Shown one piece after another: positions 4,494-58,620 of a DNA stretch of 64,000 nt. Source of the DNA: Silurus meridionalis (taxonomy: Eukaryota > Chordata > Actinopteri > Siluriformes > Siluridae); the NCBI RefSeq assembly GCF_014805685.1, contig NC_060899.1, positions 9,702,868 through 9,766,867 of the forward strand, read 5' to 3'. The notes below the pieces were generated by a model. That model made no database searches. It worked only from the letters and a program-made list of their open reading frames with translations, and was not told where the DNA came from. Made by a program: the position numbers and the translations under genes. Within the stretch, counting starts at the first letter, position 1, and each line of letters starts with the position of its first letter.

Positions 4494-4582
4494 GTTTAGC
4501 AAATTAGTTGGTCTACTTCTGACAATGGGTGGCACTGTATCAACTCTGCGAAGTGACTGCCCTTCAACTGTGATGAAGTTTG
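4494..4582 (+). CDS. spo11: spo11 exon encoding the segment before the winged-helix core
   Basis: This 89-nt exon follows a pyrimidine-rich acceptor ending TTCTTAG and is followed by the donor GTGAGA. In frame it reads 29 codons: FSKLVGLLLTMGG at the start and RSDCPSTVMKF at the end. It corresponds to the SPO11 region with VGLQM and a later SD-P---KF motif. It begins with one base completing a previous codon and ends with one base (phase 1), which fits exactly with the exon at 30241. Spo11 is the topoisomerase-VI-A-like transesterase that makes meiotic double-strand breaks in the nucleus. The first half of the exon matches the family only loosely, so identity rests on the C-terminal half and on phase. 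Upstream exons are not found in the window. Confidence 0.72.
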
Positions 4583-5690
4583 GTGAGAGAATCTTATTTT
4601 ATGAAGTTTTATGAGTGTTTATATTAGTATTATAAATATTATATATATTAGATTAAATTTTAGATATTAGATCAGAAAGGATGTCACTGAAAACAGATGC
4701 CACACTGTACCTTTCCCCCTATGCATTCACACTATAATTAGAGTATCTAGCATGAATGTATTTTAGTTATTGATAATTCTGGCATGTGCTGTCAAAGTAG
4801 AGATCAGACTTTTGCTAGAGTTAAAGAGCAGAACTCACTGTGCCACAGTAAAACAAACACTATCTTTAATCTTATCATTTTGTAGTCTTGTTTAATTTAT
4901 AATACTTAATATCAGTTCTCTAGCTGTAGAATGTGAAAAAATATACAGTACATAGGCAAATCAGGTTACTTCTATTGTGAAAATTGTTGTGAATGAACAA
5001 TAAATGGCAGAATGCTATAAAGGTAATCTTAATATATTTAAAAATTAAAACATAGTTATAACAGTTACGGGGTTTGTTGATTTGTTTGAATACGAATTTG
5101 GTTTTAATTTAGTTGTTTAGCAGTTCCTTTGAAGTTTAGTGTTACAAGCCTGTTTAGCCCATAAACATTACATTTAATTAAAAAAAAATTTTGATAGGCA
5201 TAGAAGCTGTTTATTAATATTTAGTACAAAAGTTCTAGAAAATAAAATATTATGTAGTCCTATCTTCTGATTTTGTCTCAATCTGTATAGTCAGTGTCAA
5301 GCATTACAAGGTAGTGGTGAAGGTATCCCAATCCCTTCTTTTCCCCAATCTTTAAAAGAAAATTTCAGAGCAGACAAATTGAGGCTATGTTACAAGTTGA
5401 ACTCTGGTAGTAAAAAGGAATTGTCAATGAAATACACAAATGAGCCATAAAAGTTAAGGGTTAAAGATTAACTTCTAACATAGTGATGGTCAGAGTGTAG
5501 AGAAAGGATCTGCTGAAGAAACATGCAAGCTCAGAGTAGGTGAGTTTGTGTCATGCCTTGCATGCTTCTATCTAGAATAAGTTCAATAGCCAGACCTTTA
5601 TCCAGTCTAACTGTTAACCTGTGCATTTCAAAGTAAACTCAGGGAAGAAACAACACCAAACTAACAACTGAATAAAAACTTACATTACGT
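4583..5690. other. Start of a 25.7-kb spo11 intron, AT-rich and unannotated
   Basis: Intronic sequence after the donor at 4583. No element termini or coding similarity recognised. Confidence 0.5.
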
Positions 5691-5788
5691 AACAGAGTTT
5701 TTTTCATCAAGATCTTGTATTGATGATGGGAGTGTAGGTGGTTGCCAGTCCATGTGTGAAAATGATGTTTCATGCTCCCTTCAGCTAG

Positions 5789-5998
5789 TCAGCTGACCTT
5801 CTTTCTGATTCTTTGGGAACATAACTTTGATGAACCTCCACCTAAACAATTGCAGCATCCCCAGATCATAGCACTGCCCCCACAGGCTTGTACATTAGGC
5901 ACTAGACATGATGGGTGCATCAGTTCATCCGCCTCTCTTCTTACCCTGATGCACCCATCACTCTGGAACAGTGTAAATCTGAACTCATCAGACCACAT
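5789..5998 (-). pseudogene. Tc1-like transposase fragment
   Basis: A 69-codon minus-strand stretch begins MWSDEFRFTLFQSDGC and continues to GGSAMIWGCC. The WSDE motif holds the first Asp of the DDE triad of Tc1/mariner transposases, and the GGGS-MVWGC-like block is the usual sequence about 60 residues later. The C-terminal part, with the second Asp and the Glu, is missing, so no active enzyme is encoded. Confidence 0.8.
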
Positions 5999-6290
5999 GA
6001 CCTTCTTCCATTACTCTAGAGCAGGGGTGGCCAACCCGTGGCTCGCGAGCCGCATGCGGCTCTTTGGCTGGTTTTATGCGGCTCTTACGTTCATATCGAA
6101 GTTTGTGTTTGTTTTTTAATGTGCGTGTTCGCTTTGCTTGAGTTCAATACGGTATTTTTAAGACTTAAATGAGCTTGCCCCTACTGGGAAACTTTGCGGT
6201 ATATCAGACCTGGGCAAACCACGGCCCGCGGGCCACATCCGGCCCTTTGTACATCCCTGTCTGTCCCGCGTGAGGCCAATCATAAATTAC

Positions 6291-6730
6291 AGGGATGCAC
6301 CGAAAATTTTCGCCCGAAATACCTAAATCACCGAAACAACACGGCAGAAACACAATTGTAATGACGCAATAAAAAATCGCAGCCAGCACACGGTTATCTG
6401 GATAAGAGCAACATGTCTGCGGTGTGCGGATAGCGATTTGCAAAACATGTAATGCTGAAATTTCAAGAGGGGGTGTATCTGCAAAGAGTTTCTACAAGTC
6501 GGGTTTAATTTAACACCTGAAATCCAAACATCCCGATTGCCATTCTTAATATGAGAAGAACGGGGTGCAGAAAAGTAAAGTCAATCCGAGCATGCGCACT
6601 CCGTCTGTAGTGGACGTTTTTGAAAAGGCAGGAAAGTTTTCCAGTGATGGTGCCAAGGCAAAACGTATAAATCAAAAAATTATGGATTTCATTGCCTTTT
6701 CAATTGAATTTTCATTTCGGTGCATCCCTA
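6291..6730 (+). mobile_element. Nested hAT-derived element with transposase remnant
   Basis: Bounded by AGGGATGCACCGAAA (6291) and TTTCGGTGCATCCCT (ends about 6729), an inverted terminal pair. Between them, about 6605-6690 on the plus strand reads VVDVFEKAGKFSSDGAKAKR followed by INQKIMDFIA. This resembles the N-terminal part, after the BED zinc finger, of ZBED-like hAT transposases. It is an internally deleted derivative. The 8-bp target duplication is not clear. Confidence 0.7.
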
Positions 6731-7267
6731 AAATATTATCGTTGGTGTGGCTCTCTGACACAATTCAGGTTTCTCATGTGGCCCCTTGTAAAAATTAATT
6801 TTGATTAAATTACCCTGCGGTATATTCATCTCACGCACATGCGCATTTGACGAAAATACCGTATTGAACTCAAGCGAAGTGAACACGCACATAAAAAAAA
6901 CCACACAAAAAGTCTGTGTTTTCTACCCTGAAACACGTGAAATCAAAGCATCGATCTGTTCTGACTGACACCCATGTAAAAGAATTGCTTCGAGTGGCAA
7001 CAACGGAATACAAGGCAGATTTGAAGGGGATTGTTCAAGGCAAGGAATGCCAAAAGTCCCACTAAGTAACATGCATAGTAAAAGAAAAACGCTATTGTAA
7101 ATTATTATATTTTTGTTTGTGGACTTGGTTGAACTGAGAGTTTGTGTGTGAGACAGTGCACACAATGTTCATTGTTGAAAATGACTGTCCTGTGGTCTTA
7201 GAACTGTAGGAGTCAATTTCTGTCATTATGTTGGTGTGTGACATTTACAATAAATCTGGCTGAGCAG

Positions 7268-36013: not shown

Positions 36014-36085
<72 letters not shown>

Positions 36086-37675: not shown

Positions 37676-37680
37676 ATTTA

Positions 37681-39256: not shown

Positions 39257-39341
39257 TAGGGACCGAGCACCGAGGAGCAGGCCAGAATGGCCTGCACCAG
39301 AGGTGCAAAGCCCTATTGTTTTCCTTAGAATTTATTATTAT

Positions 39342-39380
<39 letters not shown>

Positions 39381-42500: not shown

Positions 42501-43956
42501 TTTTATTTATTTATTTTTTTTTACACACGTTGGCCATTTGGGGTCCCTTAACATGCTCGAAAACTCTTGAAATTTGGCATAAAGGTCAGAGTCCTTTGTC
42601 ACTAGAGCCGGACAAAGGCTGGAATACGGGCGTGGCAGGGGGGCTCTGTAGCGCCCCCTGTAATTCAAAAACAAACATTCGTGCACAGATCGGGCAAGTA
42701 TGTACGCACATGTACGAGAGTTGGTACCCATATAGATCTCATCGAGCCGAACAACTTTCGCCCTCTAAACTATGAGCTCCGCCCAACAGGAAGTCAGCCA
42801 TTTTGGTTTGTTTTATAAGTGCATGCGGTGAACTTTTAAATACTCCGACTAGGGAATTCATGCGATTGACATCAAACGTGGTGAACATGATGCCGAGACA
42901 TTGCACTTGCTAATTTGCGAAGGGATTTTTGATATCTCGAACGCTGCTGCCATGGCGAGGCGACAAATTTATGGCGAATTCGGAGAACAGGAAGTGTTTA
43001 ATATCTAAAGCAAAAAAATTTTTATTCGGACGACACGCGGTGTGTATGTTCGGCCAAGGATCCCGATCGCAGCGATGTGTCTATTGTGAATCTCGGACAT
43101 AGCGCCACCAACAGGCGCCACGAAGTGTGTCAGTCACAAAAGGTGGATTTTTTGACAGTTGCATGTGGTGAACTTTTAAATACTCCTCCCAGGATATTTA
43201 CGTGATTGACACCAAACGTGGTCAACATGATGGTGAGACATTGTAGATAATAAATTGCAAAGGAATTTTTGATATCTCGAACGCTGTTCCCATGGCAACG
43301 CGTCAAACTTTACTTTTATTTCAGGCATATTTAACTCTTGGCATGCACTTTGGGTGCCTTAACATGCTCAAAAACACCGGAAATTTGGCACAGACGTCAA
43401 AGTCGTCTGCCATTAGGACCGGTCAAAGGCTGGAACATAGGCGTGGCAATAGGGCTCTGTAGCACCCCCTGTAATGCAAAAAACAAATATTGGTGCACAG
43501 ATCGGGAAAACATGTACGCACATGTACGAGAGTTGGTTTGCATATAGATCTCATCGACCCAAACAACTTTCACAATCAAACCTATTAGCTCCGCCCAACA
43601 GGAAGTCGGCCATTCTGGATGGTTTCAAAAGTGCATGTGGTGAACTTTTAAATACTTCTCCTAGGGAATTCATGCGATTGACATCAAACGTCGTGAACAT
43701 GATTCTGAGACATTGCACTTGCTAAATTGTGAAGGGATTTTTGATATCTCAAACGGTGCTGCCATGGCGAGGCGACAAATTTATGGCGAATTCAGAGAAA
43801 CAGGAAGTGTCTAATATCTAAAGCAAAAAAATGTCTTATTGTATGACACGCGGTTTGTATGTTCAGCCAAGGATTCCGATTGCATCGATGTACCTATTGT
43901 GAATCTTGGACATAGCACCACCAACAGGCGCCAGGAAGTGTGTCAGTCACAAAATT
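42501..43956 (-). repeat. Family B unit 13 (inverted, truncated)
   Basis: Begins with the poly-T end of a unit (no tail) and proceeds through modules to about 43956, where it stops inside the GCGCCAGGAAGTGTGTCAG module at the junction with the gypsy element. The head is missing. Confidence 0.85.
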
Positions 43957-44009
43957 CTCAAACCATGAACCAGGAAGTGTCTCAGTCACAAAATTCTCAA
44001 ACCATGAAC
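43931..44009. repeat. Tandem duplication across the array/gypsy junction
   Basis: About 39 bp, CCAGGAAGTGTGTCAGTCAC followed by AAAATTCTCAAACCATGAA, is present twice in a row with one substitution. The first half belongs to family B and the second to the following sequence, so the duplication arose after the junction formed. Confidence 0.85.
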
Positions 44010-44048
44010 ATGTAAATAGCATTATTTGCATTTACCAGATTAAGAAAA

Positions 44049-44336
44049 TCAACCTATTACAAAGTCAGCAAATTTCTGAGGCAATTTCTTTTGTCTCTGG
44101 GGCTTAGCATATGCCACATTTTGGTTACACACAGTATTAGGTGCAAGCCTCTCTGAGTCCTCTGACATTGTCTGTTGCTCTGCATTCATCGCACCATCAT
44201 CACAATCCTCTTTCTTACTGCCCTGCTTGTTTTCTGCTTCTCTCTCTACATATTTATTTACGAATGTTGTGTTGCGAGTATATTGGGCTCCAGTAGGTGA
44301 TTCAACCGTTATTTGGTTCCTAGCTTTTCTGACCAC
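44049..44336 (-). pseudogene. Gypsy pol C-terminal tail
   Basis: 95 codons, charged: NKQGSKKEDCDDGAMNAEQQ, then PQRQKKLPQKFADFVIG at the end. It is the low-complexity tail after the integrase core. An SH3-like or chromodomain fold is not evident. Confidence 0.6.
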
Positions 44337-44389
44337 TGTGTAAGGTGTTGCATTAAATGGAATGGTAAACTTGTCGATCTTGTCCTGTC

Positions 44390-44656
44390 TCAGAAGAACT
44401 CGTCTCCAACCCCTACATTTGAGTATTCTGCCTTGCGATGTTCATCCGCATACAGTTTATATTTCCCCTTTTTCTCTGCATCGTAGTCGTGAACTTCAAG
44501 ATCAGTATCAGATGTAAGATCAGGTAGCTTGCCTCTCATCTTTCTTTTGAACAGAAGCTCAGCTGGACTTTTGCCGGTGGTATTATGCACAATTCCTCTG
44601 TACACTGTGACATACTTCCTGAGTTCTTTTTGCAAGTCAAGTCCTTCTGACTGCAA
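44390..44656 (-). pseudogene. Gypsy integrase C-terminal part
   Basis: Reads LQKELRKYVTVYRGIVHNTT and GKSPAELLFKRKMRGKLPDL, the conserved T-H-TTG-SPAELLF block after the integrase core. It is separated from the core by a frameshift or small deletion. Confidence 0.85.
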
Positions 44657-44668
44657 TTCTGATACGTT

Positions 44669-45265
44669 TCATGATTGAAGCATTTTGGCGCTCAAGCCAT
44701 TTGCTTGTGCCCATTTAGGCGTCGTTTTCAGGCGTTTGATTCCGTTTGCCACACAAAAATCCTTGAATTTATCTGACCTGAATTGAGGTCCGTTGTCGGA
44801 CTTCAGTGTAAGTGGAAGTCCATGTCGGCTAAATATATCCTCAAGACTATCAAACACTTTTGTTGCAGTGGTGGAGGTTAGTATGTCATACTCATAATAC
44901 CTACTGTAATAATCCACTACAACTAGGATTGAGTGTTTTGATGGCAATGGTCCAAGTAGATTCACTGCTAGATCTTGCCATGGTCCATCTGGCAATGGTG
45001 CAGGCTGCAGTGGTTCTGGAGCATCAGGGCGAGACACAATTTGACAACCATGACATGATTTGCTAAATCTTTCTGCAGCTTTGTCCATGCCAGGCCACCA
45101 TACTTTTGTTCTCAGATGTTGTTTGGTTCCAACAATACCCATATGTCCTGCATGTGCCAGTGAAATTGCTCGTGCTTGTATTGTTTTTGGAAGAACAATG
45201 CACGTTCCACGTAGTACTATAAACCCTACAACACACAGCTCATTAGCTACAGGTTCATACGTCAT
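44669..45265 (-). pseudogene. Gypsy integrase zinc finger and catalytic core
   Basis: Reads AHAGHMGIVGTKQHLRTKVW with WWPGMDK and CHGCQ (HHCC zinc-binding domain), then GPWQDLAVNLLGPLPSKHSI (first Asp) and LTLKSDNGPQFRSDKFKDFC (second Asp). The frame breaks at AQANGLSAKMLQS, so the stretch that should hold the third acidic residue is disrupted. It would have inserted the cDNA. Confidence 0.9.
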
Positions 45266-45272
45266 ACACCTT

Positions 45273-45623
45273 TCAAAATGTCCACTCTATTGTGTTTCTC
45301 AGCTCTATGAGTTCTGAATCTTTTTCCGAAGCTTCCTCCACTTCTCTTGTAGTCAGGGCTCTTGGGGTGGCGCTGATGGCCACAAATCTCACATACTCAT
45401 CCGATTCATGCGAGTGTTTTTCTCTCATTGCAGTGCTTCCCAGGAGTCGTGATAATGGATCAGCAATGTTTTCTTTTCCAGAAACACAAACAACCTTAAA
45501 GTTATATGGTTGAAGACGCAAAACCCATCGCTCAACAAGGGCACAGGGCTTGGAACGTGGACCATATATTGACTCTAATGGCTTATGGTCTAATGGCTTA
45601 TGGTCAAACTGTCTGCCATACAC
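45273..45623 (-). pseudogene. Gypsy RNase H end and linker
   Basis: Reads RWVLRLQPYNFKVVCVSGKE with NIADPLSRL, the conserved end of the gypsy RNase H region (K-N--AD-LSR). A small duplication (FDHKPLDHKPLESIYG) is visible near the start. The region with the first RNase H acidic residues is broken. Confidence 0.85.
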
Positions 45624-45705
45624 ATAGGGGTGTAGCCTCTCGCAGGCCTATACAAGGGCCTCCCTCTCAGTCTGATAGTAACATCTCTCACAGTCTGATA
45701 GACTT

Positions 45706-46392
45706 TTACTGATGTAGCAAACTGTCACCATTTGTCCTTTTTGTCCGAAATTCTGAAGCGTTTTGTGGTTCTCTGGCCTCTGCCACAGCTCTGACTCTCT
45801 TCTCAGTGGGACCAATGCCTTTTTGTGTGAGCAGAATTCCCATGAAATTTAAGTGATCCATGCCAAACTGACATTTTGAAGGATTCAGGGTTAGCCCGCT
45901 CTCTCTTAAACGTTTCATGACGGCATGTAGACATTGCATATGTGCTTCCTGATCAGCTGCATGAACAATCACATCGTCTGAGATGTTTTCAACTCCCTCT
46001 ATTCCAGCGAGGGCAGATGCTATCTCATGTTGGTATTGTTCACTTGCAGAGGATACTCCAAAGATGAGCCGTTTGTATCTGTATACCCCATTGTGGACTG
46101 CAAATGTTGTAATCTGACGAGACTGTGGTGTCAACTCCAGTTGGTGGTATCCCCACTTAAGATCTAGCTTGCTAAAAAACTTGGATCCGTTCATGCTTTG
46201 TAAGAGCTCATCGACAGTGGGGATGGGGCATCGCTCTCTGATGATTGCTCGATTGGCTTGTCGCATGTCAAGACATAGTCTGATTTCAGAATTGGCTTTT
46301 GGCACTATTACAACTGGATTAACCCATGGTGTATGTCCGTTCACTTCTTCTATGATGTCCATTTTTAGGAGTTCTTTTATCTTTTCCTCCAC
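45706..46392 (-). pseudogene. Gypsy reverse transcriptase
   Basis: 229 codons. Motifs in order: TPWVNPVVIVPKANSEIRLC, FFSKLDLKWGYHQLELT (palm motif A Asp), FGVSSASEQYQHEIAS (B) and VENISDDVIVHAADQEAH (the catalytic Asp pair). The Asp residues are intact, but the frame ends before the thumb and connection at about 45706. Confidence 0.92.
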
Positions 46393-46416
46393 AGGACCCC
46401 TCAGATTAAACGGTAT

Positions 46417-46974
46417 TCATCTTAAAGGCTGTGCCACTAGCTGAACATTTCGGTCTATATATAAGCTGATTTGTTTGGTTTTCAGCTTACCAACTCCTTG
46501 GAAAACTTCTGGGTATTGTGAATGAAGTGTTTGTTTGAGGTCCGTTATTGCTGCAATGTTTGTGCCTATCTTCAGCACTCCAAGTTTCATAGCAGTATCT
46601 CTCCCCAGTAACGGTTCTCCAGTCCCTTTGATGACAATGAACTCTGCAGATACCATCCGGTTGTCTATTCTAGCTTCACACTCAAAAGCTCCCTTTATTG
46701 GCAAAGGTTTATCGGATGAGTAAAAGAACAGTTTGATCTCTGTTTCTTGTATGTATGAATGGCATTTGATATTCATTGATTTCAGTCTTTCCCACGTACT
46801 TTCATCAATGATATTGCTGGTTGCACCTGAGTCTTCAAGCATTTTTAAATTGAAATTTCCCAAGCAAACATTTAGTCTATCGTCTATGTAATTATCTTGG
46901 ATGACAAATGCATATTCAGGTTGACCTTCAACTTGGTTTCCTGTTTGCTGCTTTACATTTTTAGTCTTGCACAT
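46417..46974 (-). pseudogene. Gypsy protease and RT N-terminal region
   Basis: Reads KMLEDSGATSNIIDESTWER, with the D-S-G active site of retropepsins, then GEPLLGRDTAMKLGVLKIG (the LLGRD block closing the protease). It ends just before RT, where a frame break lies at about 46400-46417. Confidence 0.88.
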
Positions 46975-47059
46975 TTTTGAGAAATGGTCTCATCCTTTAC
47001 ATTTATGGCATGTCTGACCTCTCACGGGACATTTTAAATCTATCCCTAAGTGATCAGAA

Positions 47060-47747
47060 TTAACACATTCGATAGCACTGTTTATTCACCTTACTGCACT
47101 CTGCATGTTGTTTTCCCTTGAATTTCCCTTTAATTTGTTTTCCTCTTTTGTTCCAGACACGATTCACAGACTCTTTATCAGGTGTAGATGTCTCACTAAC
47201 CGATGATGCACCCATCTGTTCCTCTATCCGTTCACAGAGCGCGGCAACCTCCAATGCACAATCTAGTGTGAGGTTAGGTCCCTACTCCAAAAGTTTGCGA
47301 CGCACATATGTTGACGAACATTTGCCTACTATGGCATCCCGAATCTGATTATTCATGTCATCCACAAATGCACAGTCTCTTGCTGCCTGTCTGAGACGTG
47401 TTGCAAACTGCTGAACCATCTCTCCGGGGTTTTGGGAAAGTTTATAAAATGATTGCCTTGCATACGCATTATTTACGCATGGAACGAAGTATGCATTCAA
47501 AGCTGCAATGGCCTCGTTATAATCAACAGCTTTGTTATAATCAACAAATATCCTGAACATCAGGTCCAGCATGATGCAAAAGAAGTGCTCTGCGTCTCTG
47601 ACGAACTGCCGCTGTTGCGTCCTCAGCAATTATCAGTCCTTTTCCGTCCGCGTAAAGTTCAAATGATGTCAGCCACCTTGTCCATCCTGGACCAAGAGTT
47701 GCGGGATCTTTGTAGCACTCAAACGTAGGAATACCTGACTTTTCCAT
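47060..47747 (-). pseudogene. Gypsy gag, in three frames
   Basis: Starts MEKSGIPTFECYKDPATLGP at 47747, followed by WTRWLTSFELYADGKG, then a shifted frame with YKLSQNPGEMVQQFATRLRQ (47629-47282), the capsid region, and a third frame with CERIEEQMGASS (47254-47060). A cysteine/histidine cluster with CHKC-like spacing follows at about 46985-47015 but is out of frame. Confidence 0.85.
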
Positions 47748-47795
47748 CGTGTATAATCAGTACTAATATTCACACTGCTGCATCCTTGTCGCCAA

Positions 47796-48051
47796 TGTTG
47801 TGTATCTGTTTTATATACCTCGTTTATCTTATTAACTTAGTCACACGCCAATCAGGATTCTGAACAGCATTTTTACTCGTTTTCTCAAGCACACTACACA
47901 TATTCAACATCCCGCTCCTAGTATGTATTGCACTGCTCTAAAGGCTACTGCAATCTATTAAATAGGCTAATAACTGTCATTTAGGTTATGATGTGTTGCC
48001 TGCTATGCTTTTACGCATAGAACAACAATATTTCTTTTAGCCTGCATAACA
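47796..48051 (-). mobile_element. Gypsy 5' LTR
   Basis: On the minus strand it runs from TGTTATGCAGGCTAAAAG to GATACACAACA, i.e. TG...CA, and is followed directly by the TTGGCGACAAGG leader. About 256 bp. No second copy in the window, so it is assigned from its ends and position. Confidence 0.75.
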
Positions 48052-48280
48052 TTATCATTTATAGTAGGTAGTTTATCATAATATGTGTAGCTTTCAACAA
48101 AATAATTACACCCTACCTAGTGTAGTTGGATGGTAGTTAAAATTGCACTTATTGATTTGGTTACTTTTAATTAATGTCATAATTTTTTGTGATTATACTA
48201 AAAAGGTCCTAAACTGAGTTAAGTAAGGCAAAGCTCCAGTGCAGCTTTAAAGGCTTATTTAAACTGAATATATTATAAGT
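48052..48280. other. Unassigned AT-rich DNA
   Basis: Nothing recognised between the gypsy LTR and the SINE. Confidence 0.4.
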
Positions 48281-48858
48281 GGATACCAGCAGCCATATCA
48301 CCCTGTAGCCCAAGACAGCTTGCCCACTGAAGCTAAGCAGGGTTGAGCCTGGCCAGTACTTGGATGGGAGACCACCTGGGAAAAACCAGGTTGCTGCTGG
48401 TAGAGGTGTTAGTGAGACCAGCAGGGGGTGCTCACCCTGTGGTCTGTGTGGGTCCTAACACCCCAGTATAGTGACAGGGACACTATACTGTAAAAAAAAA
48501 AAAAAAGCACCGTCCTTCGGATGAGACGTTAAACTGAGGTCCTGACTCTCTGTGGTCATTAAAAAATCCCAAGATGTCTTTCGAAAACGAGTATGGGTGT
48601 GCCCCGGCATCCTGGCCAAACTTGCCCGCTGGCCTATTAATCATCCCCTCATATTAATTGACTATATCACTCTATCTCCTCTCCACTAATATGCTGGTGT
48701 GTGGTGGGCGTTCTGGTGCAATATGGCTGCCGTCGCATCATCCAGGTGGATGCTGCACATTGGTGGTGGTTGAGGAGAATCCCCCTTTTCATATGTAAAG
48801 CGCTTTGAGTGCTGCAGAAAAGCGCTATATAAATGTAACGAATTATTATTATTATTAA
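48281..48858 (+). mobile_element. SINE3-type retroposon derived from 5S rRNA
   Basis: The first 120 bp or so follow 5S rRNA: CATATCACCCTGTAG, GAAGCTAAGCAGGGTTGAGC (A box region) and TACTTGGATGGGAGACCACC (C box), with CTGGGAAAAACCAGG. The middle contains a conserved GGATGAGACGTTAAACTGAG core. The 3' end AAAGCGCTTTGAGTG...CGCTATATAAATG plus (ATT)n is an LINE-type tail. An (A)n run at 48494-48507 interrupts the body. It would be transcribed by RNA polymerase III from the internal 5S-type promoter. Confidence 0.92.
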
Positions 48859-49191
48859 GTAATATGTTGTGTGTCTAATACAATCTAATACTGGGCTACA
48901 ATTAGCCCAGGAGCTGTATGGTTCTTGGTTCTAAAAGTTTGATCATTATTAGTAGTTGTACAGAAGATTTTGGGCTAATGTTAATTTATTAGATATTAAT
49001 CAGTGCTTGACTCATTAATATCATTCTATTAATAGATTGGTGTGCTAAGAGTAACATTAGAGTCTTTATATAAACCGAGTTTATTAAGCAAAGTCTCTTG
49101 TGACAAAAATTATAATAAGAACATTATAGCAGTCAACTTATCTGTTTTCAAACGTGACTTACTGACTTACTGCTATGTTCATGTCAGGGAT

Positions 49192-49460
49192 CCACCTGCC
49201 ACACCCCCTCGGCGGCTGTCATGCTGCCGCTCTCTCTGCCGCTCCCGGCTTTGATTACCGACACTGGTTCTTCATTAACTATTCACCTACATAAACGCCT
49301 GTTTCAGAGTCACCGGCTGTCGGTTCTTGAACGTCATGCTACCGATCCTCGTGGATCCTCGACCGCCAGCATTCCCCATGTTTATTGAATGGAGAGAGCA
49401 CAACACAGAGTCAGGGAGAGTTACGAACCGTTTTCTCCGCGTGGTCTGAGCCGTTGACCG
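49192..49460 (+). mobile_element. LTR fragment of the TGTCAGG family
   Basis: Begins TGTCAGGGATCCACCTGCC and continues CACCCCCTCGGCGGCTGTCA, related to the starts at 12533 and 54431. CACCGGCTGTCGGTTCTTGA at about 49312 also recurs at 54534. The 3' end is not clear. Confidence 0.65.
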
Positions 49461-51329
49461 TTTAAATGCTGGTTTTCAATGTTTGTATATTTAATTTATG
49501 CATTATATATTTTAATTATTATACAAAAATGTATTATATATTTTAGATGCTTATATTTTCACAACTGAACAAAATATCTGTGTAATTTTTAAAAACAGAA
49601 ATTGTCAAAAATGTTATTATAATTTAGATTGATTTTTTTAAGCATGGTTGCCAACTTGCCATCTGCAAAATAAAATACAAATGTTAATTTACACAAATCG
49701 CATTACCTTGTATGCTTAAATGCTGGGTTTTGTTTGTTTGTTTTTTACAGAACGAAACAACCCAGCAGGAGTAAATTTGTTTAAAAGAGAAATCCCCCAT
49801 GTACTCAACAAGCATTTAACAACCTTTATACATAAATACCCTGAATTAGGCTTTAATATAGTTATAAGTAAAACATCTAATAATAATAATAAAAAAAATC
49901 AGATTAATCAGTTAATCTGAAATGAATAAATTAAACAATCATCCGATTAATTGATTGCACGGTTGCAGCCCTAGTAATTACTATTTGGCCATTTCATTAA
50001 AAATGAACTGGTTTCCTCTGACTTTTGCACAGTACTGTACTATAAATTGAGGTAGACCAGATATAAATGGTTTGATGAGTGTTTTGCTTAAAATTTGTGT
50101 AAAGTCTTTATATTCTTAATATCATTTCTTTGTGAATCCGATACAATTTTGTTCAAGCATATAAAGTGGATATAAAAAACTCAAGACTTAACCTAGGATT
50201 TTGTGAATTTAAAATGGCACTAAGAGAAATATTTTTTTTTATGTGATATGATAACAAAAAAAAAAATCTCAATTGATAAACAAAGAGAAACATTTAAGAC
50301 CAGTTTGGTTTTTAGGTATGCACAGCATTTAGGGATTTTGTTTTAATACATTTTGCTTACACTACACCACTCAAATTTCCATTGATAATTTCCCCTGAAC
50401 TCTTGTTAAATCTGAGCACAATCACATGCCCAATTATAAAAGGGTGCTGAATTTAAGGCTAAACTGATGTTATTGATTTCACATATGAACAGTGGCTGCT
50501 TCTTTAAGCTGCCTCTAGCAGTACACTTATGACATTTTATGATGTTGCTGGTGTTAGATCTTGCCCTTAGTTGTCTAAGCAGAGGCAAAGTCACATATAC
50601 TTACAGCAACCCACTTTCAAGATAAGTGCTTTATTATCGTTATTACTCTTTTTAAAACTGCAAAAGGTGAAAAACAACACTGGATATACCTATATATTAA
50701 AAAGATGGCTAAAAGGTTTTTTTTTTTTGGCTGAACTCTACAGATGCATGATGAAGTGATAATGCATTAAGAGCATGCCAGATTATGGTACTTATTTTTG
50801 TTTGAAAAATAATAGATCAGTCACTAATATTTTTTTGGAAATCTACACAGTGCAAGCATGGACAAAACTTGTCTTGTTTTATTACACTTGAGTTTTTTAA
50901 CCCTGTACAAACAGTTTCACAATGCCATACAGGTAGATAGAGCTAAAAGTTATTGGTCTATTTTAAAATGAAAGAAATGATCATCCTCTCTAATGAAAAA
51001 CCAAGACATTGTAACCTGTTATTGGCCACAACAACGACCTGGTATTTGTTTAACTGACAATGTGAAAATTGTTTTGTAGACATTTATGTAACTGTACACA
51101 AAAATTTGCAAACAAATATATACATTGTAATACATATCTTTTATTATTGAAATGCCTTTGAGAATCATGAAGTTCATATGTTTTTGTCAAATTGTTTAAC
51201 CCTAGTACTGAGGCCATTTAACTCGTTCTTAGAGTTGTAAGAACTGTTAAAAATCCATATACATAAAACCATTTTAATATACTGTACAGTATATAAAATT
51301 AAGGATTAATGTGTGTGCTCCCTTTACAG
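49461..51329. other. AT-rich spo11 intron sequence
   Basis: Only one repeat end is recognised: ATTGCACGGTTGCAGCCCTA at about 49955-49972, the same hAT-like terminus as at 4456. Short open frames here have no recognisable product. Confidence 0.45.
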
Positions 51330-51410
51330 TGTGCCAGTACAAAAGGATTAATCTCTGGTGATTTGTGTTACTTGGAGGAAGATGGGACAAGGGTGGACTG
51401 TACCTCTACT
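51330..51410 (+). CDS. spo11: spo11 exon between the winged-helix and Toprim domains
   Basis: An 81-nt exon between CTCCCTTTACAG and GTAAGT, phase 0 at both ends. It reads CASTKGLISGDLCYLEEDGT then RVDCTST, matching the SPO11 block STSKGLI-G-L-Y-EEDGT--NC after RRSLHI. The splice to the preceding exon gives SLHV-CASTKG. The next exon starts 6,991 bp downstream. No stop or frame break. Confidence 0.95.
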
Positions 51411-51603
51411 GTAAGTCAGCAACATGGCCAAGCTCTACTTTGATACTAGTCTAGCATCCACACATTAAACATGTTTGTGTAGCTGTAGTGAAACAAAGCT
51501 GCCTAGTACTTTTGATTATGGGATTTAATTTATTTTGAGATTATTTCAAATTTGGAAAAGCTAATAATCTGGCTATTCTTAAAACAGGTTTATATTTAAT
51601 ATA

Positions 51604-51909
51604 CACTATATTGATAAAAATATCAGGACAACTGACTTACCCAGCCACATGTGGTTCTTTTCCAAACTTATGTCAAAGCTGAAGGCACACAATTGTATTG
51701 GGTGTCCTTGGATGCAGTAGCAAAAAATTTTTCCTACACTTGAACTAGGAGACCCAAACCTGTTCCAGCATGACAATGCCCCAGTGCACAAAGCCAGCTC
51801 CATGAAGATATGTTTTGCATAGATTGGAGTGGAAGCTCTCCTGCTGTATACGTTGCTCATAAAGCACATACTTATGACCAGGTGTCCGCAAACCTTTGAC
51901 AATATAGTG
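51604..51909. mobile_element. Short Tc1-like non-autonomous element
   Basis: Ends CACTATATTG and CAATATAGTG are inverted. TA precedes the left end; the right flank is CA in place of TA. Inside, TTCCAGCATGACAATGCCCC is a remnant of the transposase block coding FQHDNAP. About 0.3 kb. Confidence 0.75.
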
Positions 51910-52239
51910 CATGTGTAACCAGTTGTATTTTGATCTTATCCAGTATTCTTTCAGTAATATACCTTGCATTTCACAACTATTTAGAACAGGGGCGAGGCCA
52001 AAAATTTTTTAAACAGGGTGGGCAAACCAAAAAGTATTGTATGAAAGCTGCATGCCAAATTACGGAAAATAAATGAACTATTATAAATGAACTTACGTTC
52101 AATTGTCGTCCTACAATATTAGTCGATTGAGCTTCCGGCTAAACACTGAGATGATATCATAATCACCTGTATCTGTCAGTTCATGTTCAAAAGACAGCAG
52201 AGACAAATCGCTTAGACGAACAGTAAGCACTAAAGACCG

Positions 52240-52400
52240 TAGACAGGTTTTAATGCGGTTTGAAATGGGGAGGGTTGCTTTAGGAAGAGCATCCAGCGTA
52301 AAAACGTGCCAAATCGAATATGCGGTTTATGAAAACGAATGATCTGCTGTGGCAAACCCCTAATAGGAGAACCCGAAAGAAAGTTGTAGAGAACAGTCTT
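52240..52400 (+). mobile_element. 3' end of an RTE-like LINE or related SINE
   Basis: Contains AGGAAGAGCATCCAGCGTAA and GATCTGCTGTGGCAAACCCC plus TAATAGGAGAACCCGAAAG. The final block is shared with the end of the LINE at 62900-62965, so it is a 3'-end fragment of that lineage or a SINE using its tail. Confidence 0.7.
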
Positions 52401-52449
52401 TTAACACTGCATGATGTCATCGGGAGAGTAATAGGGGCTCATTTAAATT

Positions 52450-53260
52450 AGTTGACGTTTGGAAAGATGTTCTTAGGTCCTGTCCAGCATCTGCCTTTTG
52501 TTTTAGTTGCTCAGCCTGTGACAGGTATGGCTGGTAACTATAGTCCTTTTGTTGCACAAGTGTTGATTAAAATTTTTGTATCAAATGTTACTAGAAGAAA
52601 CAGGAACTTTTTTGTTTGCATTTGTTGCAAAAGAGTGTCAGTTTCTAGTTTAGTTAAGTTTCTAGTTTTGGTTTCAGAATACACTGTTAATGTTTTTAAG
52701 ATCGCATCAAGTAGTGTCAGGATCTTGGTTGAAAAAGCCCAACTTAGAGTCCCACCTTGTGTCCTTGAGTAAAGGTTTGTAATTGATTGTCTGTCAGAAT
52801 TGCTGTCTACAGGGTTACTTTAAAAAATGGTTTGGATTTATAATAATCGTCTGGATTTCTTGCCTGATGTTTTCAACTTTATTATTGAAAAGGTTAATGA
52901 AATTATTACTACCTATTGATGGTGTGCATGTTAGTGCAGTGCTTTTATTTCCTGTTAATTTCGCTACCGTGCTCTAGGATTAAAACACAATACAAATTCA
53001 AATCTAGGATTATGCTTGTTATTTTCTATGAGGGTAAAGAAATATGCTGATCTAGCAGCACTAAGAGATTTTCTATAATTTAGGAGGCTCTCCTTCCATG
53101 CTATTTGAAATACTGTGAATTTTGTTTGACGGCATTTACGTTCTAATTTCCGAGTGGTCTGATTTAAGGTGCGCGTGTGATCATTATACCACTGTGCTAA
53201 TTTTTTTTCTTCCTGATCATGTTGGTCTTGAGGGGAGCTACATCATCTAGAGTAGGGGTC
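52450..53260 (-). pseudogene. L2-like LINE fragment (endonuclease-RT linker)
   Basis: On the minus strand: TRTLNQTTRKLERKCRQTKF then TVFQIAWKESLLNYRKSLSA and YFFTLIENNKHNPRF (about 53190-53000), then SIGSNNFINLFNNKVENIRQ near 52910. This linker precedes the reverse transcriptase in L2/CR1 LINEs. It is probably the continuation of the endonuclease piece at 53960-54180, interrupted by an LTR and other insertions. Stops present. Confidence 0.72.
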
Positions 53261-53375
53261 GCCCGCAAAAACAACTTGAGTCGCCCAACTTGAGGCCTTT
53301 TCTAAAAATAGCTCACCATATCGCCACTTCCCAGCGAGCTGCATCTAATTTTTATTTTATTTTTTTTTTTAACTC

Positions 53376-53772
53376 TGTCAAGGATACACCAAGAGTCGGA
53401 AACCGGTGTATGGTTAAACACCTTGTCTTTATTTAGTCTAAACATATACAAGGCAGAGGCTTGAGGACGAACCGTAATGCAGGTAGAATCCGTAATGCAA
53501 GTAGTCCAAGGATGATTGCCAATTTGAATTGTTAAAGGCAAACCTATCTTAAGCGCTTTCTCCGAAGCTTGGAGCATGGAAGTACGGGGCATACTAGTGG
53601 TAGGAAGTCTGGTTGATCTCTCATGGCAACGAGTAGATCCGACAGTGAGTGAGGTGGAATGGGGACCTTCTAAAGCGGAACGGTAATGGGGAACAGGTGT
53701 AGGTGATTAGAGCAGGGAGCGGTTTAATGAGAGTTAGAGCCTTGGAGGGAGTGGCTGGTGGTTCCCTGAAAA
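53376..53772 (-). mobile_element. LTR of the TGTCAGG family (minus)
   Basis: On the minus strand it starts near 53772 with CAGGGAACCACCAGCCACTC, passes CTAATCACCTACACCTGTTC, and ends GTGTATCCTTGACA. The 5' TGT is mutated to T-rich sequence. It is inserted within the L2-like LINE pieces. Confidence 0.6.
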
Positions 53773-53878
53773 AATCACACTTGCATTGGTGTGAATTTAA
53801 AAATAACAATATTAAAATATAGATGACTAGATAAAGATGAATATCATTAATTATTAATAATAACACATAGTTATAGGT

Positions 53879-53906
53879 AAATAATAATAATAATAATAAC
53901 AATAAC

Positions 53907-53942
<36 letters not shown>
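53879..53942. repeat. (AAT)n microsatellite
   Basis: AATAATAAT run with two AAC interruptions. Confidence 0.95.
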
Positions 53943-53959
53943 AATAAGAGGTACTAATG

Positions 53960-54180
53960 CAATGACTGAGGCAGATTTGAAAAAACATAAGGTAATGGTC
54001 TGAAATATGTGTGTCCACCACTATGAGTGAGTCCTATGACATTCTGATTAATTCCAACTGAATCTAGTATAGACTAAAAAAAAGTCACCAACAATTAATG
54101 CTTTGTCTAAAAAAGTAGCAAAATTTGTGATGAAATCGGCAAATTCTATGAGAAAAGAGTAGGGCCCGGGGGGGTCTATA
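53960..54180 (-). pseudogene. L2-like LINE endonuclease fragment
   Basis: The minus strand reads IEFADFITNFATFLDKALIV then GDF, matching the LINE apurinic-type endonuclease segment before the GDFN motif (the Asn is lost here at a junction). It is in line with the linker piece at 52450-53260. Confidence 0.65.
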
Positions 54181-54208
54181 AATAATAATTAATGGAATTG
54201 ACCTACTA

Positions 54209-54300
54209 GACCACATGTGTCAAACTCAAGGCCCGCGGGCCACATCTGGCCCGATGTACAATAATATTTAATTTTATATAAATCTATTATCATTGTTATT
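54209..54300 (+). mobile_element. hAT-like element end
   Basis: CATGTGTCAAACTCAAGGCC followed by CGCGGGCCACATCTGGCCC is a typical 5' end of fish hAT-like elements; a related block is at 6205-6245. The other end is missing. Confidence 0.55.
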
Positions 54301-54430
54301 ATTGTTATTGCGAAATGAAGCGCTGATAACACAAACTACAGATTCCATAATGCAGCGCTTTGATGTCGAGAAAAATATTCGAACTAACCTTATCTAGAGT
54401 GTGTTTTAATCCAACTAATATCCATCCAAC

Positions 54431-54815
54431 TGTCAGGGATTCCCCTGCCACGCCCCCCTCAGTGGCTGTCAGGGATTCACCTGCCACGCCCCCCTCGGTA
54501 GCAGTCATGCTGCCTATGCTATGCCGCGCCGTCACAGGCTGTCGGTTCTTGAATGTCTTGCTGGTCATCCCGCGTTTCCTCGACCGCCAGCCTTCCCGCT
54601 GGTTCTGTCTCCAGACTCTGTTTCCGGTTGGATTACTCTTGGCCATTGGAGTTGTACTTTCGTTTCCGGATTCTAGTTCTGTTGTGGATTACTCGTCCCG
54701 AGCGGATATTCTTTGTTTGTTTCTCGCCACGGCTAAGTGTTTTTGTTGAACTGTGAAAATAAACTATGATTGAGTTATTTCCGCTATTTCCGGCGTGACT
54801 TTGCCTTCAAAAGGA
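54431..54815 (+). mobile_element. LTR of the TGTCAGG family (plus)
   Basis: Starts TGTCAGGGATTCCCCTGCC; the first roughly 38 bp are repeated at once (TGTCAGGGATTCACCTGCC at 54469). AATAAACTATG at about 54759 is a polyadenylation-type signal. It runs directly into the minisatellite, so its end is uncertain. Confidence 0.6.
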
Positions 54816-54819
54816 CTGG

Positions 54820-55370
54820 GAGGCATGGCTTCGCCTTCAGATGGACTTGGAGGTGAGCCGTCGCCTTGTGTGAAACGTGGAGGCGAGACGTCGCCTGGAG
54901 AGGAACACTGAGGCGTGACTTCACCTTCAGAAGCACTTCAAGGCGTGGCTTCGCCTTCAGATGGACTTGGAGGTGCGGCTTCGCCTTCAGATGGACTTGG
55001 AGGTGTGGCTTCGCCTTCAGGGCAACTTAAGTGTGAGACGTTGCCTCCGGAGGAGCTCTGAGGCAAAACGTTACCTTCAGGAGAGCTCGTAGGCGAGACG
55101 TCACCTTCAAGAGAGCCCGCAGGCATTACGTCGCCTTCAGGGGAGCTCGGGAGCGAGATGTGACCTTCAGTGGAGCTCGGGAGCGAGATGTCGCCTCCGG
55201 GGGAGCTCGGGAGCGAGACGTCGCCTCCGGGGGAGCTCGGGAGCGAGACGTCGCCTCTGGGGGAGCTCGGGAGAGAGACGTCGCCTCCGGGGGAGCTCGG
55301 GAGCGAGACGTCGCCTTCGGGGGAGCTCGGGAGCGAGACGTCTTCTTCAGGGAGCTTGGGAGGGACCTTG
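54820..55370. repeat. 30-bp minisatellite with coding periodicity
   Basis: A unit like GGGAGCTCGGGAGCGAGACG plus TCGCCTCCGG is repeated about five times nearly perfectly at 55196-55350, with more diverged 30-bp copies back to about 54820. The period is a multiple of three, so every frame repeats each 10 residues. Confidence 0.92.
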
Positions 55371-55538
55371 GGCTGTCATGCCACCTTCATAGGCACTCAG
55401 AGTCGCAACGGCACCGCCAGCGTGATTTGCGGGCAAAATGTCGTCTCTGGATGAGCTCAGGGGCGATACGTCGCCTTCCGGGGAACTTGGTGGTGACATT
55501 TTGTCCGAGTCACGGCCCAGGGGCTGTACGACCTCCAT
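54938..55538 (-). pseudogene. Retroelement-like ORF made of decapeptide repeats
   Basis: An ATG at 55538 (minus strand) lies about 110 bp downstream of the LTR at 55647-56023. It opens MEVVQPLGRDSDKMSPPSSP and passes into repeats of the type SSPEGDVSLP. After a frame break near 55350 the repeats continue down to 54938, where a stop occurs. The position after an LTR suggests a gag-like leader ORF. No known domain is visible, and plus-strand open frames over the same repeats are shadows of the periodicity. Confidence 0.5.
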
Positions 55539-55646
55539 CTTGCAGAGCGAAACCTCCCCTTGTCCCGGTGGGTCTTGCAGCGACCGATCGGGTCACGTGG
55601 AGGCCACGGTGATAACCCAATCATGTTTTTTGAAGGTCTGTTATTC

Positions 55647-55717
55647 TGTCAGGGAGCAAATGAACAGAGTACAGCTCGCTCGGGTTTAATAACGAGAGAG
55701 AGAGAGAGATACACGCA

Positions 55718-55754
<37 letters not shown>

Positions 55755-56023
55755 ATACGCACACACACGGCAGTCTTTAGGAAAGAGGTAATCCGGGATG
55801 CGCTTTGGGGAGACAGCGCAGCCGCGGAGAGAGTGTAGAGTCCGGAAGGAACGGAGCGCATAAGGACACGTAACACATTCAATAACGGACAAAGGAGTGA
55901 GTGTGAGTGAGCAGCTTATGTAGGAGCGGGACTGAGTGATAATGAGCCCCAGGTGTGCGTGATTAAGCTGGAAGCGGAGGCATGACAGCCACCAAAAGGG
56001 GCGTGGCAGATGGATTCCCGACA
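55647..56023 (-). mobile_element. LTR of the TGTCAGG family (minus), TG...CA ends intact
   Basis: On the minus strand it runs from TGTCGGGAATCCATCTGCCA to TTTGCTCCCTGACA. It contains CCGCTCCTACATAAGCTGC, a TATA-like box, and GA/CA microsatellites at about 55691-55768. It faces the LTR at 54431 across the minisatellite. Confidence 0.75.
55691..55768. repeat. (GA)n and (CA)n microsatellites
   Basis: GAGAGAGAGAGAG is followed by a CA run with one TC interruption, inside the LTR. Confidence 0.93.
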
Positions 56024-56399
56024 ATATCAGTGGCCAGCAAAGCTTTCTCTGCTAGTCTTAACACTATCAGAAGCACTGACCTACATTTGCAACCTAAATT
56101 CTAATATTTGTTTCATAAAAATTTATTTATTTATTCCCAACAGTCTATTCTCTTCATTTTGTAGCGCTTCTCTTGGCTGCACTGCTTCCTCCAGTATGTG
56201 TATGTGGATGTTATATTTTTTTGTCCAATTAGATTTCAGCCTCTATGTGCTGCCATGTCAATTTAATCTGCCCAGAGCAGATTTACAATAGGGAATATTA
56301 GCAACCAGTCTGTTTCTTTCAGCTAGCTGTCCATGGAAAGCGTCAGCATTTTTCCGTCCTCTGATTTTGACATGTGTAGTGCTCTGCACACATTAATAC

Positions 56400-56580
56400 A
56401 TCTGAGATAGACTTTTTTTATGCCTATGGAGGAAAAGAAATTGATTTGGTCTCTGACATTCCTAAAAATCCATTTTTAAGAAAAGCTAGACATCGTGAGG
56501 AGAGGTCAGCCAACCCCGAAGCTAGCTAGCTTGTCTCAGCCAAGGTTTGTTCGCCACTTCTGTGCTGTGCGTCAGGGGCA
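56400..56580 (+). pseudogene. hAT transposase N-terminal remnant
   Basis: The plus strand reads GGKEIDLVSDIPKNPFLRKA then RHREERSANPEAS and a stop; the next frame gives LSQPRFVRHFC. This is the linker before the zinc-finger part of ZMYM-like hAT transposases (EIDLV / FVRHF pattern). Confidence 0.55.
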
Positions 56581-56639
56581 GAAGCTGGCTTCAAAAAAAG
56601 CAGACACAAGTGCTTTTTTTAGTGCTTAGCCCATATGCC

Positions 56640-56845
56640 GCACACTGCGGGGGGTTTTTTTGCTAAAGAAAACCAGTGTTTTTCATGTCCTGTGGTCTGA
56701 TGAGACTTGTTTGGTTCAGATGGTGTCCAGCATATGTGATGACACCCTGGTGAGGAGTACCAAGAAAATTGTTTCTTCCGTACAGGTGGTGGTAACATCC
56801 TGGTCTGGGGCTGCACGAGTGGTACTGGGGAGCTGCGGTTCATTG
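56640..56845 (+). pseudogene. Tc1-like transposase fragment
   Basis: The plus strand reads HVLWSDETCLVQMVSSICDD; WSDET contains the first catalytic Asp. In the next frame GGGNILVWGC-like sequence follows (GGTGGTGGTAACATCCTGGT). A short internal fragment with no ends. Confidence 0.7.
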
Positions 56846-57260
56846 AGGGGAAATTTGAATTTGTATAGCGCTTTTAACAATGGACATTGTCTCAAAGCAG
56901 CTTTACAGAGATCATGTGGTAAGAAAGAATTAGTGAGATTGTTCTTTATAACTGTAAGTTTGTCCATAATGAGCAAGCCGGTGGCAACTGAGATAGCATA
57001 AGGAAGACAACCTTGAGAGTAACCTGATTTAAGAGGGAATCCATCCTCATCTGGGTTGCAATAAAATGTCTATTTATTACAGCTTAACAGTGTTAATGTG
57101 TGCAGTGATGGTGATCAGATGCAAACTGTAGTCCTGAGTCAGTGTAGCAGAATGATGACATTAACTCCAATCCAAATCCTAAAAGTTCCTGTTCTTACTC
57201 CGTAATTTCATGGATCCCCAGGGTGTTGATAAGAAACCATCCTCAGCTGCACAAAGTTAG
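56846..57260 (+). repeat. Dispersed fish repeat with GCGCTTTTAACAATGGACAT start
   Basis: TTGTATAGCGCTTTTAACAA, then GACATTGTCTCAAAGCAGCT and later GGGAATCCATCCTCATCTGG, are hallmarks of a repeat common in fish genomes, probably an L2-tailed SINE or LINE 3' end. The class is uncertain. Confidence 0.55.
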
Positions 57261-57682
57261 CTTTATTTGAAGAGAACACCATCCAGAGGCAGGCCAAGAG
57301 GAAGTGGGCAGATTCGAGGAGAGGGGCTGGAACAGATCATTGCACATGCCTTTCTATGATTGCGCACTGCACACTTTATACATGCACACACTTCTGTTTC
57401 TCGCCTTTGTACATTTTTAATTTTTGTTTTTTGTTGTCTGTTTTTCTTGTCTTTAATTTCTGTCATAGACTGCTTAAAGGATTCACAAAGTCAAAATTTT
57501 ATTGTATGCTGTAATAGACTGTTTTCTGTACATATGACACATGATACTTATATTGTAGCATTCATATTTCCCTTAATTGGAGACTTAAAAAGTCTCAATT
57601 TTGCTTTATCATGACAAGACATAAATTAGATCCATAAGCACATGGCTTATCAAGGTTAATGTGAAAGATCTTGAGTTTGAAT

Positions 57683-58165
57683 CCAGGTAAAAAATTAATG
57701 CAACTCTGGATGTAAATGTATGCTGTGACCTTGCATAAGCGTATTGAAATGTTAATCAAAGCAAAAGGTGGTCCAAATATTAGATATAATAGAGGTTTTA
57801 AAGCGGGGGTCACCAACCTTTTTGAAACTGAGAGCTACTTCTTGGGGACCAATTAATGTGAAGGGCTACCAGTTTTATACACACAGTTTTTAGTTTGATC
57901 TGAAATAACACATTTGCTTAATTTACCTTTTATTATATGTTATTATTAATAATTACTGATATTCATCTATGTGAAGACACTGATCATGTTAATGATTTCT
58001 CATAATAATTATCATCAATGATTTAACAAAGTAGGAAACATCTACTTTTAGAAAAGGCCCGCAGGCTACTCATGTGGTCCTTGCAGACTACCGTTGGTGA
58101 CCCCTGTTTTAAAGTGTGTGACTTTTTCTGCCCAGGCATTGTATGTTTATATTGTCTAATTTCCT
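57683..58165. mobile_element. Tc1-like terminal segment, interrupted by a hAT MITE
   Basis: TGCATAAGCGTATTGAAATG and GGTCCAAATATTAGATATAA, then after the insert GTGTGACTTTTTCTGCCCAG, match the order at 59222-59400. It is therefore a second copy of that Tc1-like end. Confidence 0.7.
57804..58106. mobile_element. hAT MITE, 303 bp, perfect 8-bp target duplication
   Basis: Ends CGGGGGTCACCAAC and GTTGGTGACCCCTG. TTTTAAAG is repeated at 57796-57803 and 58107-58114. It has no coding capacity. Confidence 0.92.
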
Positions 58166-58401
58166 AGACAGTGGATCTTGAGTTTAAAGACCTCTGAATC
58201 CTGATCATAAATTGCTGTCTTAAACTGCTTTTGCATCGCCTATTTTAAGTTTTACTGAAAAATTATTTGCAATAAATAGTGTTATGCTTCAGCTGTTATT
58301 ACAAATTTCATCTATATCTTTATCACTTTTTATATAGACTTCTGTAATATAATGTTTTAATAACATGTTTAATGACTTTATTATTATTGTTATAAACTTA
58401 G

Positions 58402-58438
58402 GTGGTGCCTGTGTCCTCTAGTGTCAGTGGAATCATAA
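58402..58438 (+). CDS. spo11: spo11 mini-exon, 37 nt
   Basis: Acceptor TATAAACTTAG, donor GTATCC. Reads VVPVSSSVSGII and leaves an A that is completed by AT of the next exon (Asn). It corresponds to the SPO11 block AVPSN-QGIRN. The usual Arg of GIRN is replaced by Ile (codon ATA where a one-base change would give AGA). The donor is canonical only in its GT, so splicing may be weak. Phase fits both sides (0 in, 1 out). Confidence 0.82.
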
Positions 58439-58510
58439 GTATCCTTTTTATTTACATAAACAGTCATTGCAATGTGTTCTTTGAAGTTGTTTGTTGTCCT
58501 TAATATTAAG

Positions 58511-58620
58511 ATATTGTGTCATCTGCAAAATTTGTTCTAGTCATTGAAAAAGATGCAACTTTCCAGAGACTTGTGGATGATGAATTTTGCATTAATTTCT
58601 ATCCATGCATTATTATAACA
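58511..58620 (+). CDS. spo11: spo11 exon with the first Toprim acidic residue
   Basis: A 110-nt exon, acceptor TTAATATTAAG, donor GTAAGT. After the split Asn it reads IVSSAKFVLVIEKDATFQRL then VDDEFCINFYPCIIIT, phase 0. FVL-VEKDATFQRL is the SPO11/TopVIA Toprim motif; its Glu coordinates Mg2+. The DxD-containing exons that should follow are not present up to 64000, so the gene goes on beyond the window. The preceding intron is only 72 bp, against 7-26 kb for most others here. Confidence 0.95.

What the first reader, a model, noticed from the sequence alone, without database searches (positions are those of the whole stretch)
4494..58620. Cryptic spo11 gene spread over more than 54 kb of transposon-filled introns
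Six exons of 37-110 nt, all with GT-AG borders and mutually consistent phases, encode about 164 continuous codons of a Spo11 protein, including the RDIYY active-site block and the VIEKDATF Toprim motif. None would be found by open-frame length. Seen: exon borders, frames and motifs. Known: these motifs define SPO11/TopVIA. Inferred: the gene is functional, since no stop or frameshift was found in any exon.
Basis: partly seen in the sequence, partly recalled or inferred. Interest (0 to 1): 0.85.

Follow-up and report, generated by a model that had tools for sequence, protein, structure and literature searches.

The report
Ordinary catfish spo11, very long introns
The window holds the middle six exons of a catfish's normal spo11 gene (the enzyme that cuts DNA to start meiotic recombination), already predicted in public databases and unusual mainly for introns swollen with repeats.

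Summary
Six GT-AG exons (window 4494-58620) encode 164 open codons, identical at 164 of 164 residues to NCBI's predicted Silurus meridionalis SPO11 isoform X4. In the window's own 742.6-Mb assembly the other seven exons lie on the same contig and strand: 13 exons, 12 of 12 introns GT-AG, 384 codons, 117,335 bp from start codon to stop. A PF04406 search gave one match. Human and mouse Spo11 are given as 14.0 kb and 13 exons (PMC3966222, passage), so what stands out is intron growth (up to 37.5 kb). Two introns carry arrays of a dispersed repeat, inverted relative to each other around exons 4-5. Two NCBI isoforms equal exon 2 skipping (like mammalian SPO11-alpha) and joint exon 7+8 skipping, which removes the Toprim glutamate. 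The latter junction occurs in 8 of 127 suitable database proteins, from eight fishes, though six of the eight are otherwise incomplete. Verdict: ordinary, known gene; the isoform is the only lead.

The parts
4494..4582 (+). spo11 exon 3 (89 nt)
   Evidence: AG/GT borders, identity to P0050
4583..30240 (+). intron 3-4, 25,658 bp; repeat block 15032-29483
30241..30307 (+). spo11 exon 4 (67 nt)
30308..33765 (+). intron 4-5, 3,458 bp
33766..33874 (+). spo11 exon 5 (109 nt): RDIYY block with the catalytic tyrosine
   Evidence: the one PF04406 match of the assembly search
33875..51329 (+). intron 5-6, 17,455 bp; repeat block 37677-43954 inverted relative to intron 3-4; integrase and reverse-transcriptase frames on the - strand at 44669-45286 and 45706-46416
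51330..51410 (+). spo11 exon 6 (81 nt)
51411..58401 (+). intron 6-7, 6,991 bp
58402..58438 (+). spo11 exon 7 (37 nt), absent together with exon 8 from isoform X7
58439..58510 (+). intron 7-8, 72 bp
58511..58620 (+). spo11 exon 8 (110 nt): VIEKDATF, start of the Toprim domain

Best explanation
The six exons are exons 3-8 of an intact 13-exon spo11 gene, by our searches the only one, of a Silurus catfish, most likely Silurus meridionalis. The protein is the meiotic DNA-cutting subunit: a winged-helix domain with the catalytic tyrosine (exon 5) and a Toprim metal-binding domain (E in exon 8, DxD in exon 9). Two protomers pair so that the tyrosine of one meets the metal pocket of the other, and together they cut both DNA strands. 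Shown here: gene anatomy, frame, motifs, one locus, exact match to database proteins. Inferred from the family: the biochemistry and the meiotic role. The great length comes from repeat and transposon growth inside introns, removed by ordinary splicing (inferred).
For: 164/164 identity to P0050; 13 exons in order on one strand, 12 of 12 introns GT-AG, 384 codons then stop; the model reproduces P0050 exactly by dropping exon 2 and P0170 exactly by dropping exons 7+8; PF04406 gives one match in 742,560,071 bases and the 11 rows of the P0050 search all lie at this locus; both SPO11 domains of P0050 score over the Pfam cut-offs; the 10 Foldseek matches with E <= 0.001 are all Topo VI A or Spo11 chains; roles of mouse Y138, E224, D277 and D279 from PMC11922745 (passages).
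Against: No RNA was examined; the NCBI proteins are predictions. No relative's DNA was available, so dN/dS was not computed. The assembly is unnamed and its contig C16 (17,276,953 bp) is not exactly as long as the NCBI contig behind P0050 (17,279,140 bp), so the species is inferred and other Silurus species were not compared. The genome search scores only its best candidates. The predicted model of P0050 has only moderate confidence (mean pLDDT 66.4, pTM 0.51) and low TM-scores (0.30-0.41 by query length).
Confidence: 0.97

Rival explanations
1. A decaying or non-functional spo11 copy whose exons are intact only because decay is recent.
For: Very long, repeat-rich introns; Silurus-specific residues, such as FCINFYPC where Ictalurus has FCTQFYPC and Xenotaenia FCTKLSPC.
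Against: All 13 exons open with 12 of 12 GT-AG introns, no second copy found that could take over, 87.8% identity over the fragment to Ictalurus, catalytic motifs kept.
Confidence: 0.02
2. A chance chain of short open frames resembling Spo11.
For: Each exon is short (37-110 nt).
Against: Shuffled windows reach at most 26.6 bits against 72-77 bits for the best hit; exact match to a database protein; flanking exons found in order.
Confidence: 0.001
3. The inverted repeat arrays in introns 3-4 and 5-6 are functional: they pair in the pre-mRNA and favour circular RNA or skipping of exons 4 and 5.
For: 124 of 124 matches of 200 bp or more between the two introns are inverted, none direct; the longest is 2,141 bp at 91.6%; they flank exons 4-5. 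That inverted repeats flanking exons can promote circular RNAs is recalled, from no call.
Against: The repeat is dispersed in the assembly, often in arrays (180 matches of a 600-base piece, a lower bound), so its presence needs no function, and the orientation of a whole array may be set by one event (inference); losing exons 4+5 (67+109 = 176 nt) would break the frame.
Confidence: 0.04

Closest known systems
Silurus meridionalis SPO11 isoforms X4 and X7 (NCBI predictions, P0050 and P0170)
   Same: Window fragment identical over 164 residues to P0050; the whole-locus gene model reproduces both proteins exactly.
   Different: Nothing in the proteins; contig lengths differ by 2,187 bp.
Mammalian Spo11 gene (mouse, human)
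   Same: 13 exons; a 38-codon exon 2 that can be skipped in frame (this locus: 114 nt; mammals: 38 amino acids, PMC3966222 passage); same kinds of catalytic motif.
   Different: 14.0 kb in mammals (PMC3966222 passage) against 117 kb here.
Archaeal topoisomerase VI subunit A (1d3y, 2zbk)
   Same: Winged-helix plus Toprim architecture; phmmer of P0050 E 7.8e-24 and 6.1e-28, better than yeast Spo11 8urq at 7.5e-12.
   Different: A topoisomerase subunit, not a meiotic protein.

Membership tests
SPO11 / TopVIA | TP6A_N (winged-helix) domain with RD[IL]YY tyrosine block | tested here: met
   PF04406 E 2.9e-23 on the fragment; RDIYY in exon 5
SPO11 / TopVIA | Toprim domain with metal-binding glutamate (VEKDA-type motif) | tested here: met
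   VIEKDATF in exon 8; PF21180 204.9 bits on P0050
SPO11 / TopVIA | Toprim DxD motif | tested here: met
   DADPHG in exon 9, outside the window at C16:9769552-9769651
SPO11 / TopVIA | Complete open reading frame at one locus | tested here: met
   13 exons, 384 codons and one stop at the end, 12 of 12 introns GT-AG
SPO11 / TopVIA | Fold like Topo VI A | tested here: met
   10 of 10 Foldseek hits with E <= 0.001 are Topo VI A or Spo11, but from a moderate-confidence model and with TM-scores of 0.30-0.41
SPO11 / TopVIA | Meiotic expression and double-strand-break activity | not testable with these tools
   no RNA or biochemistry available

The most novel reading that the evidence does not exclude
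Fishes make, beside normal SPO11, a conserved in-frame isoform that drops exons 7+8 (49 codons) and with them the first strand, helix and second strand of the Toprim domain, including the metal-binding glutamate, while keeping the tyrosine and DxD. Paired with a normal subunit it could form a dimer with at most one working active site (a nickase) or act as a brake on break formation.
Probability: 0.07. Interest if true: 0.6.

Novelty: already known. Interest (0 to 1): 0.15.

Why it matters
As a gene find it adds nothing new: the protein is already in NCBI. It is a clean example of a gene of 14.0 kb in mammals (PMC3966222, passage) reaching 117 kb in a teleost by intron growth, against the general teleost tendency to short introns described in PMC9438311 (abstract and one section seen). 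If the exon 7+8-skipping isoform proved to be translated and conserved, it would bear on how cells limit dangerous SPO11 cuts.

Tried and rejected
Human SPO11 typed from recall found four of the six exons clearly (E 1e-4 or better), exon 3 only weakly (E 0.50) and not exon 7; catfish proteins replaced it. An earlier GT inside CACGTG as donor of exon 5 was set aside because the protein keeps the valine. My first borders for exons 11 and 12 were one base off and were corrected. Exons 1-2 and 9-13 gave no believable tblastn hit inside the window (rows with E < 2 shown) and lie outside it. A 32077-32127 match to the GKG block at E 10 was chance: exon 9 is at C16:9769552. Structure prediction of isoform X7 against X4 (mean pLDDT 58.8 against 66.4; pTM 0.40 against 0.51) leans towards a damaged Toprim domain in X7 but decides nothing: both models are weak and the two also differ by exon 2. 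A PDB search with 37 residues around RDIYY found nothing; the joined 164 residues did. An alignment-based count of exon 7+8 loss flagged 9 of 153 proteins; the ninth (P0184) keeps the exon 7+8 residues and lacks the next stretch, so I use 8. Papers, all seen as listings unless said: 'Silurus meridionalis' with 'spo11' gave two papers, neither on this gene by title and abstract start; 'spo11, catfish, meiosis, intron' two, likewise; 'spo11, isoform, toprim, exon skipping' one plant paper; four or more of 'spo11, zebrafish, isoform, alternative splicing, exon skipping' 691, of which 15 listed, none a fish SPO11 isoform paper by title. Passages of the Spo11 review PMC12203943 name mammalian alpha/beta and plant splice variants. 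These searches cover only the open library, so I do not claim that the isoform is unpublished.

Full report
OBSERVATION. They are far above chance: 20 dinucleotide-preserving shuffles of the window reach at most 26.6 bits with three fish SPO11 queries, while the window's top five scores are 77.4 to 43.9 bits with the Ictalurus query, 72.0 to 38.9 with Hemibagrus and 75.9 to 30.8 with carp. Pfam finds TP6A_N (E 2.9e-23) and the beginning of the Spo11 Toprim domain (E 3.1e-06) in the joined peptide.

IDENTITY. A search of 5.8 billion proteins with a query containing the fragment gave Silurus meridionalis SPO11 isoform X4 (P0050) as best hit; over the fragment it is identical at 164 of 164 positions, with Ictalurus furcatus next by score at 87.8% and Clarias gariepinus at 84.8%. 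A truncated Pangasianodon isoform is 90% identical over 70% of the fragment. The window lies at C16:9702868-9766867 of an unnamed assembly of 742,560,071 bases in 285 contigs. C16 is 17,276,953 bp; the NCBI contig behind P0050 is 17,279,140 bp. The species is therefore very probably S. meridionalis, but other Silurus species were not compared.

WHOLE GENE. Searching the own assembly with P0050 and P0170 placed the exons on C16, + strand, in order. The borders are: exon 1 9669571-9669671 (from the ATG), 2 9669785-9669898, 3-8 in the window, 9 9769552-9769651, 10 9769892-9769929, 11 9770514-9770590, 12 9780619-9780730, 13 9786786-9786905 (to the stop). Twelve of 12 introns are GT-AG; the product has 384 residues and ends in one stop. 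The span from start codon to stop is 117,335 bp. Introns are 113, 37462, 25658, 3458, 17455, 6991, 72, 8064, 240, 584, 10028 and 6055 bp. The PF04406 search found one match in the assembly, in exon 5, and all 11 rows of the P0050 search lay on C16 at this locus, so there is no sign of a second copy; both searches score only their best candidates.

ISOFORMS. Dropping exon 2 from the model gives P0050 (X4) letter for letter; dropping exons 7 and 8 gives P0170 (X7) letter for letter. X6 and X2 share the first 307 residues of the full model and take sequence from intron 11-12 (C16:9777495 on) and intron 12-13 (C16:9783064 on). Exon 2 is 114 nt, 38 codons; in mammals the exon 2 that distinguishes SPO11-beta from SPO11-alpha is also 38 residues (PMC3966222, passages; alpha skips and beta includes exon 2: PMC7165175, start of abstract). 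Of 131 collected proteins with enough flanking sequence, 6 lack exon 2 by alignment: P0006, P0046, P0050, P0088, P0090, P0091.

Exons 7 and 8 (37 and 110 nt) break the frame singly but keep it together (147 nt). The same exon 6 to exon 9 junction occurs in 8 of the 127 proteins, among 187 collected, that carry both the tyrosine block and GKG[VYF]PD; 116 of the 127 carry the glutamate motif, and the other three without it (P0008, P0037, P0048) do not have this junction. The eight are P0009 Sinocyclocheilus grahami, P0012 Scleropages formosus, P0013 Salmo trutta, P0014 Oryzias sinensis, P0017 Labeo rohita, P0022 Callorhinchus milii, P0170 S. meridionalis and P0177 Tachysurus fulvidraco. Against this: the first search admitted only short proteins, so 8 of 127 is not a frequency; six of the eight (all but P0170 and P0177) lack a normal beginning and may be faulty gene models; all are database proteins whose RNA support I did not see. 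That the Callorhinchus entry comes from a transcriptome is recalled only.

In the X4 model the skipped stretch (residues 150-198) holds three strands and two helices, and P0050's Pfam Toprim match starts at residue 169, while that of X7 begins only at profile position 29 of 170. In mouse, E224A SPO11 binds DNA but cannot cut, and mixed with Y138F it only nicks (PMC11922745, passages). By a simple consensus score with recalled base frequencies, exon 7 has the weakest donor and exon 8 the lowest acceptor score of the six window exons; the 72-bp intron between them is near the teleost short-intron peak of around 76 bp (PMC9438311, section 5). Splicing noise or model error is the default reading.

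INTRONS. Ten of the 36 open frames of 120 aa or more were scanned against Pfam: 8 had hits at E <= 0.01, of Tc1- or Sleeping Beauty-type transposase, hAT dimerisation, integrase or reverse-transcriptase kind, two of them (31143-31775 and 62065-62430) below the curated cut-offs; 2 (32768-33379 and 46417-46989) had none. Two blocks, 15032-29483 and 37677-43954, are built of one repeat family; 124 of 124 matches of at least 200 bp between the two introns are inverted. A 600-base piece has 180 matches, a lower bound, on at least 20 contigs, often in arrays such as C19:9976749-9997379. It is therefore a common dispersed repeat that has landed in spo11, not a feature of spo11.

VERDICT. A correct reading of raw sequence by the first stage, of a gene that is real, apparently single and intact, but ordinary and already predicted in public databases. 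Its size is notable against 14.0 kb in mammals; spo11 of other catfishes could not be measured here.

Noticed in passing
window 15032-29483 and 37677-43954: Arrays of a dispersed repeat in introns 3-4 and 5-6, inverted relative to each other (124 of 124 matches of 200 bp or more), flanking exons 4-5; 180 matches of a 600-base piece in the assembly, a lower bound.
   Followed up: partly
window 58402-58620: Exons 7 and 8, separated by a 72-bp intron, are jointly skipped in frame in isoform X7; the same junction is seen in predicted SPO11 proteins of eight fishes, six of them otherwise incomplete.
   Followed up: partly
C16:9777495 (L016) and C16:9783064 (L017): The differing ends of NCBI isoforms X6 and X2 are encoded at least in part inside introns 11-12 and 12-13 and replace the end of the Toprim domain.
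   Followed up: partly
window 32768-33379 (+): A 203-codon stop-to-stop frame overlapping intron 4-5 with no Pfam hit at E <= 0.01; looks mobile-element-like by recall only.
   Followed up: no
window 54792-55362: Tandem repeat with a 30-bp period that is open in long frames on both strands.
   Followed up: no
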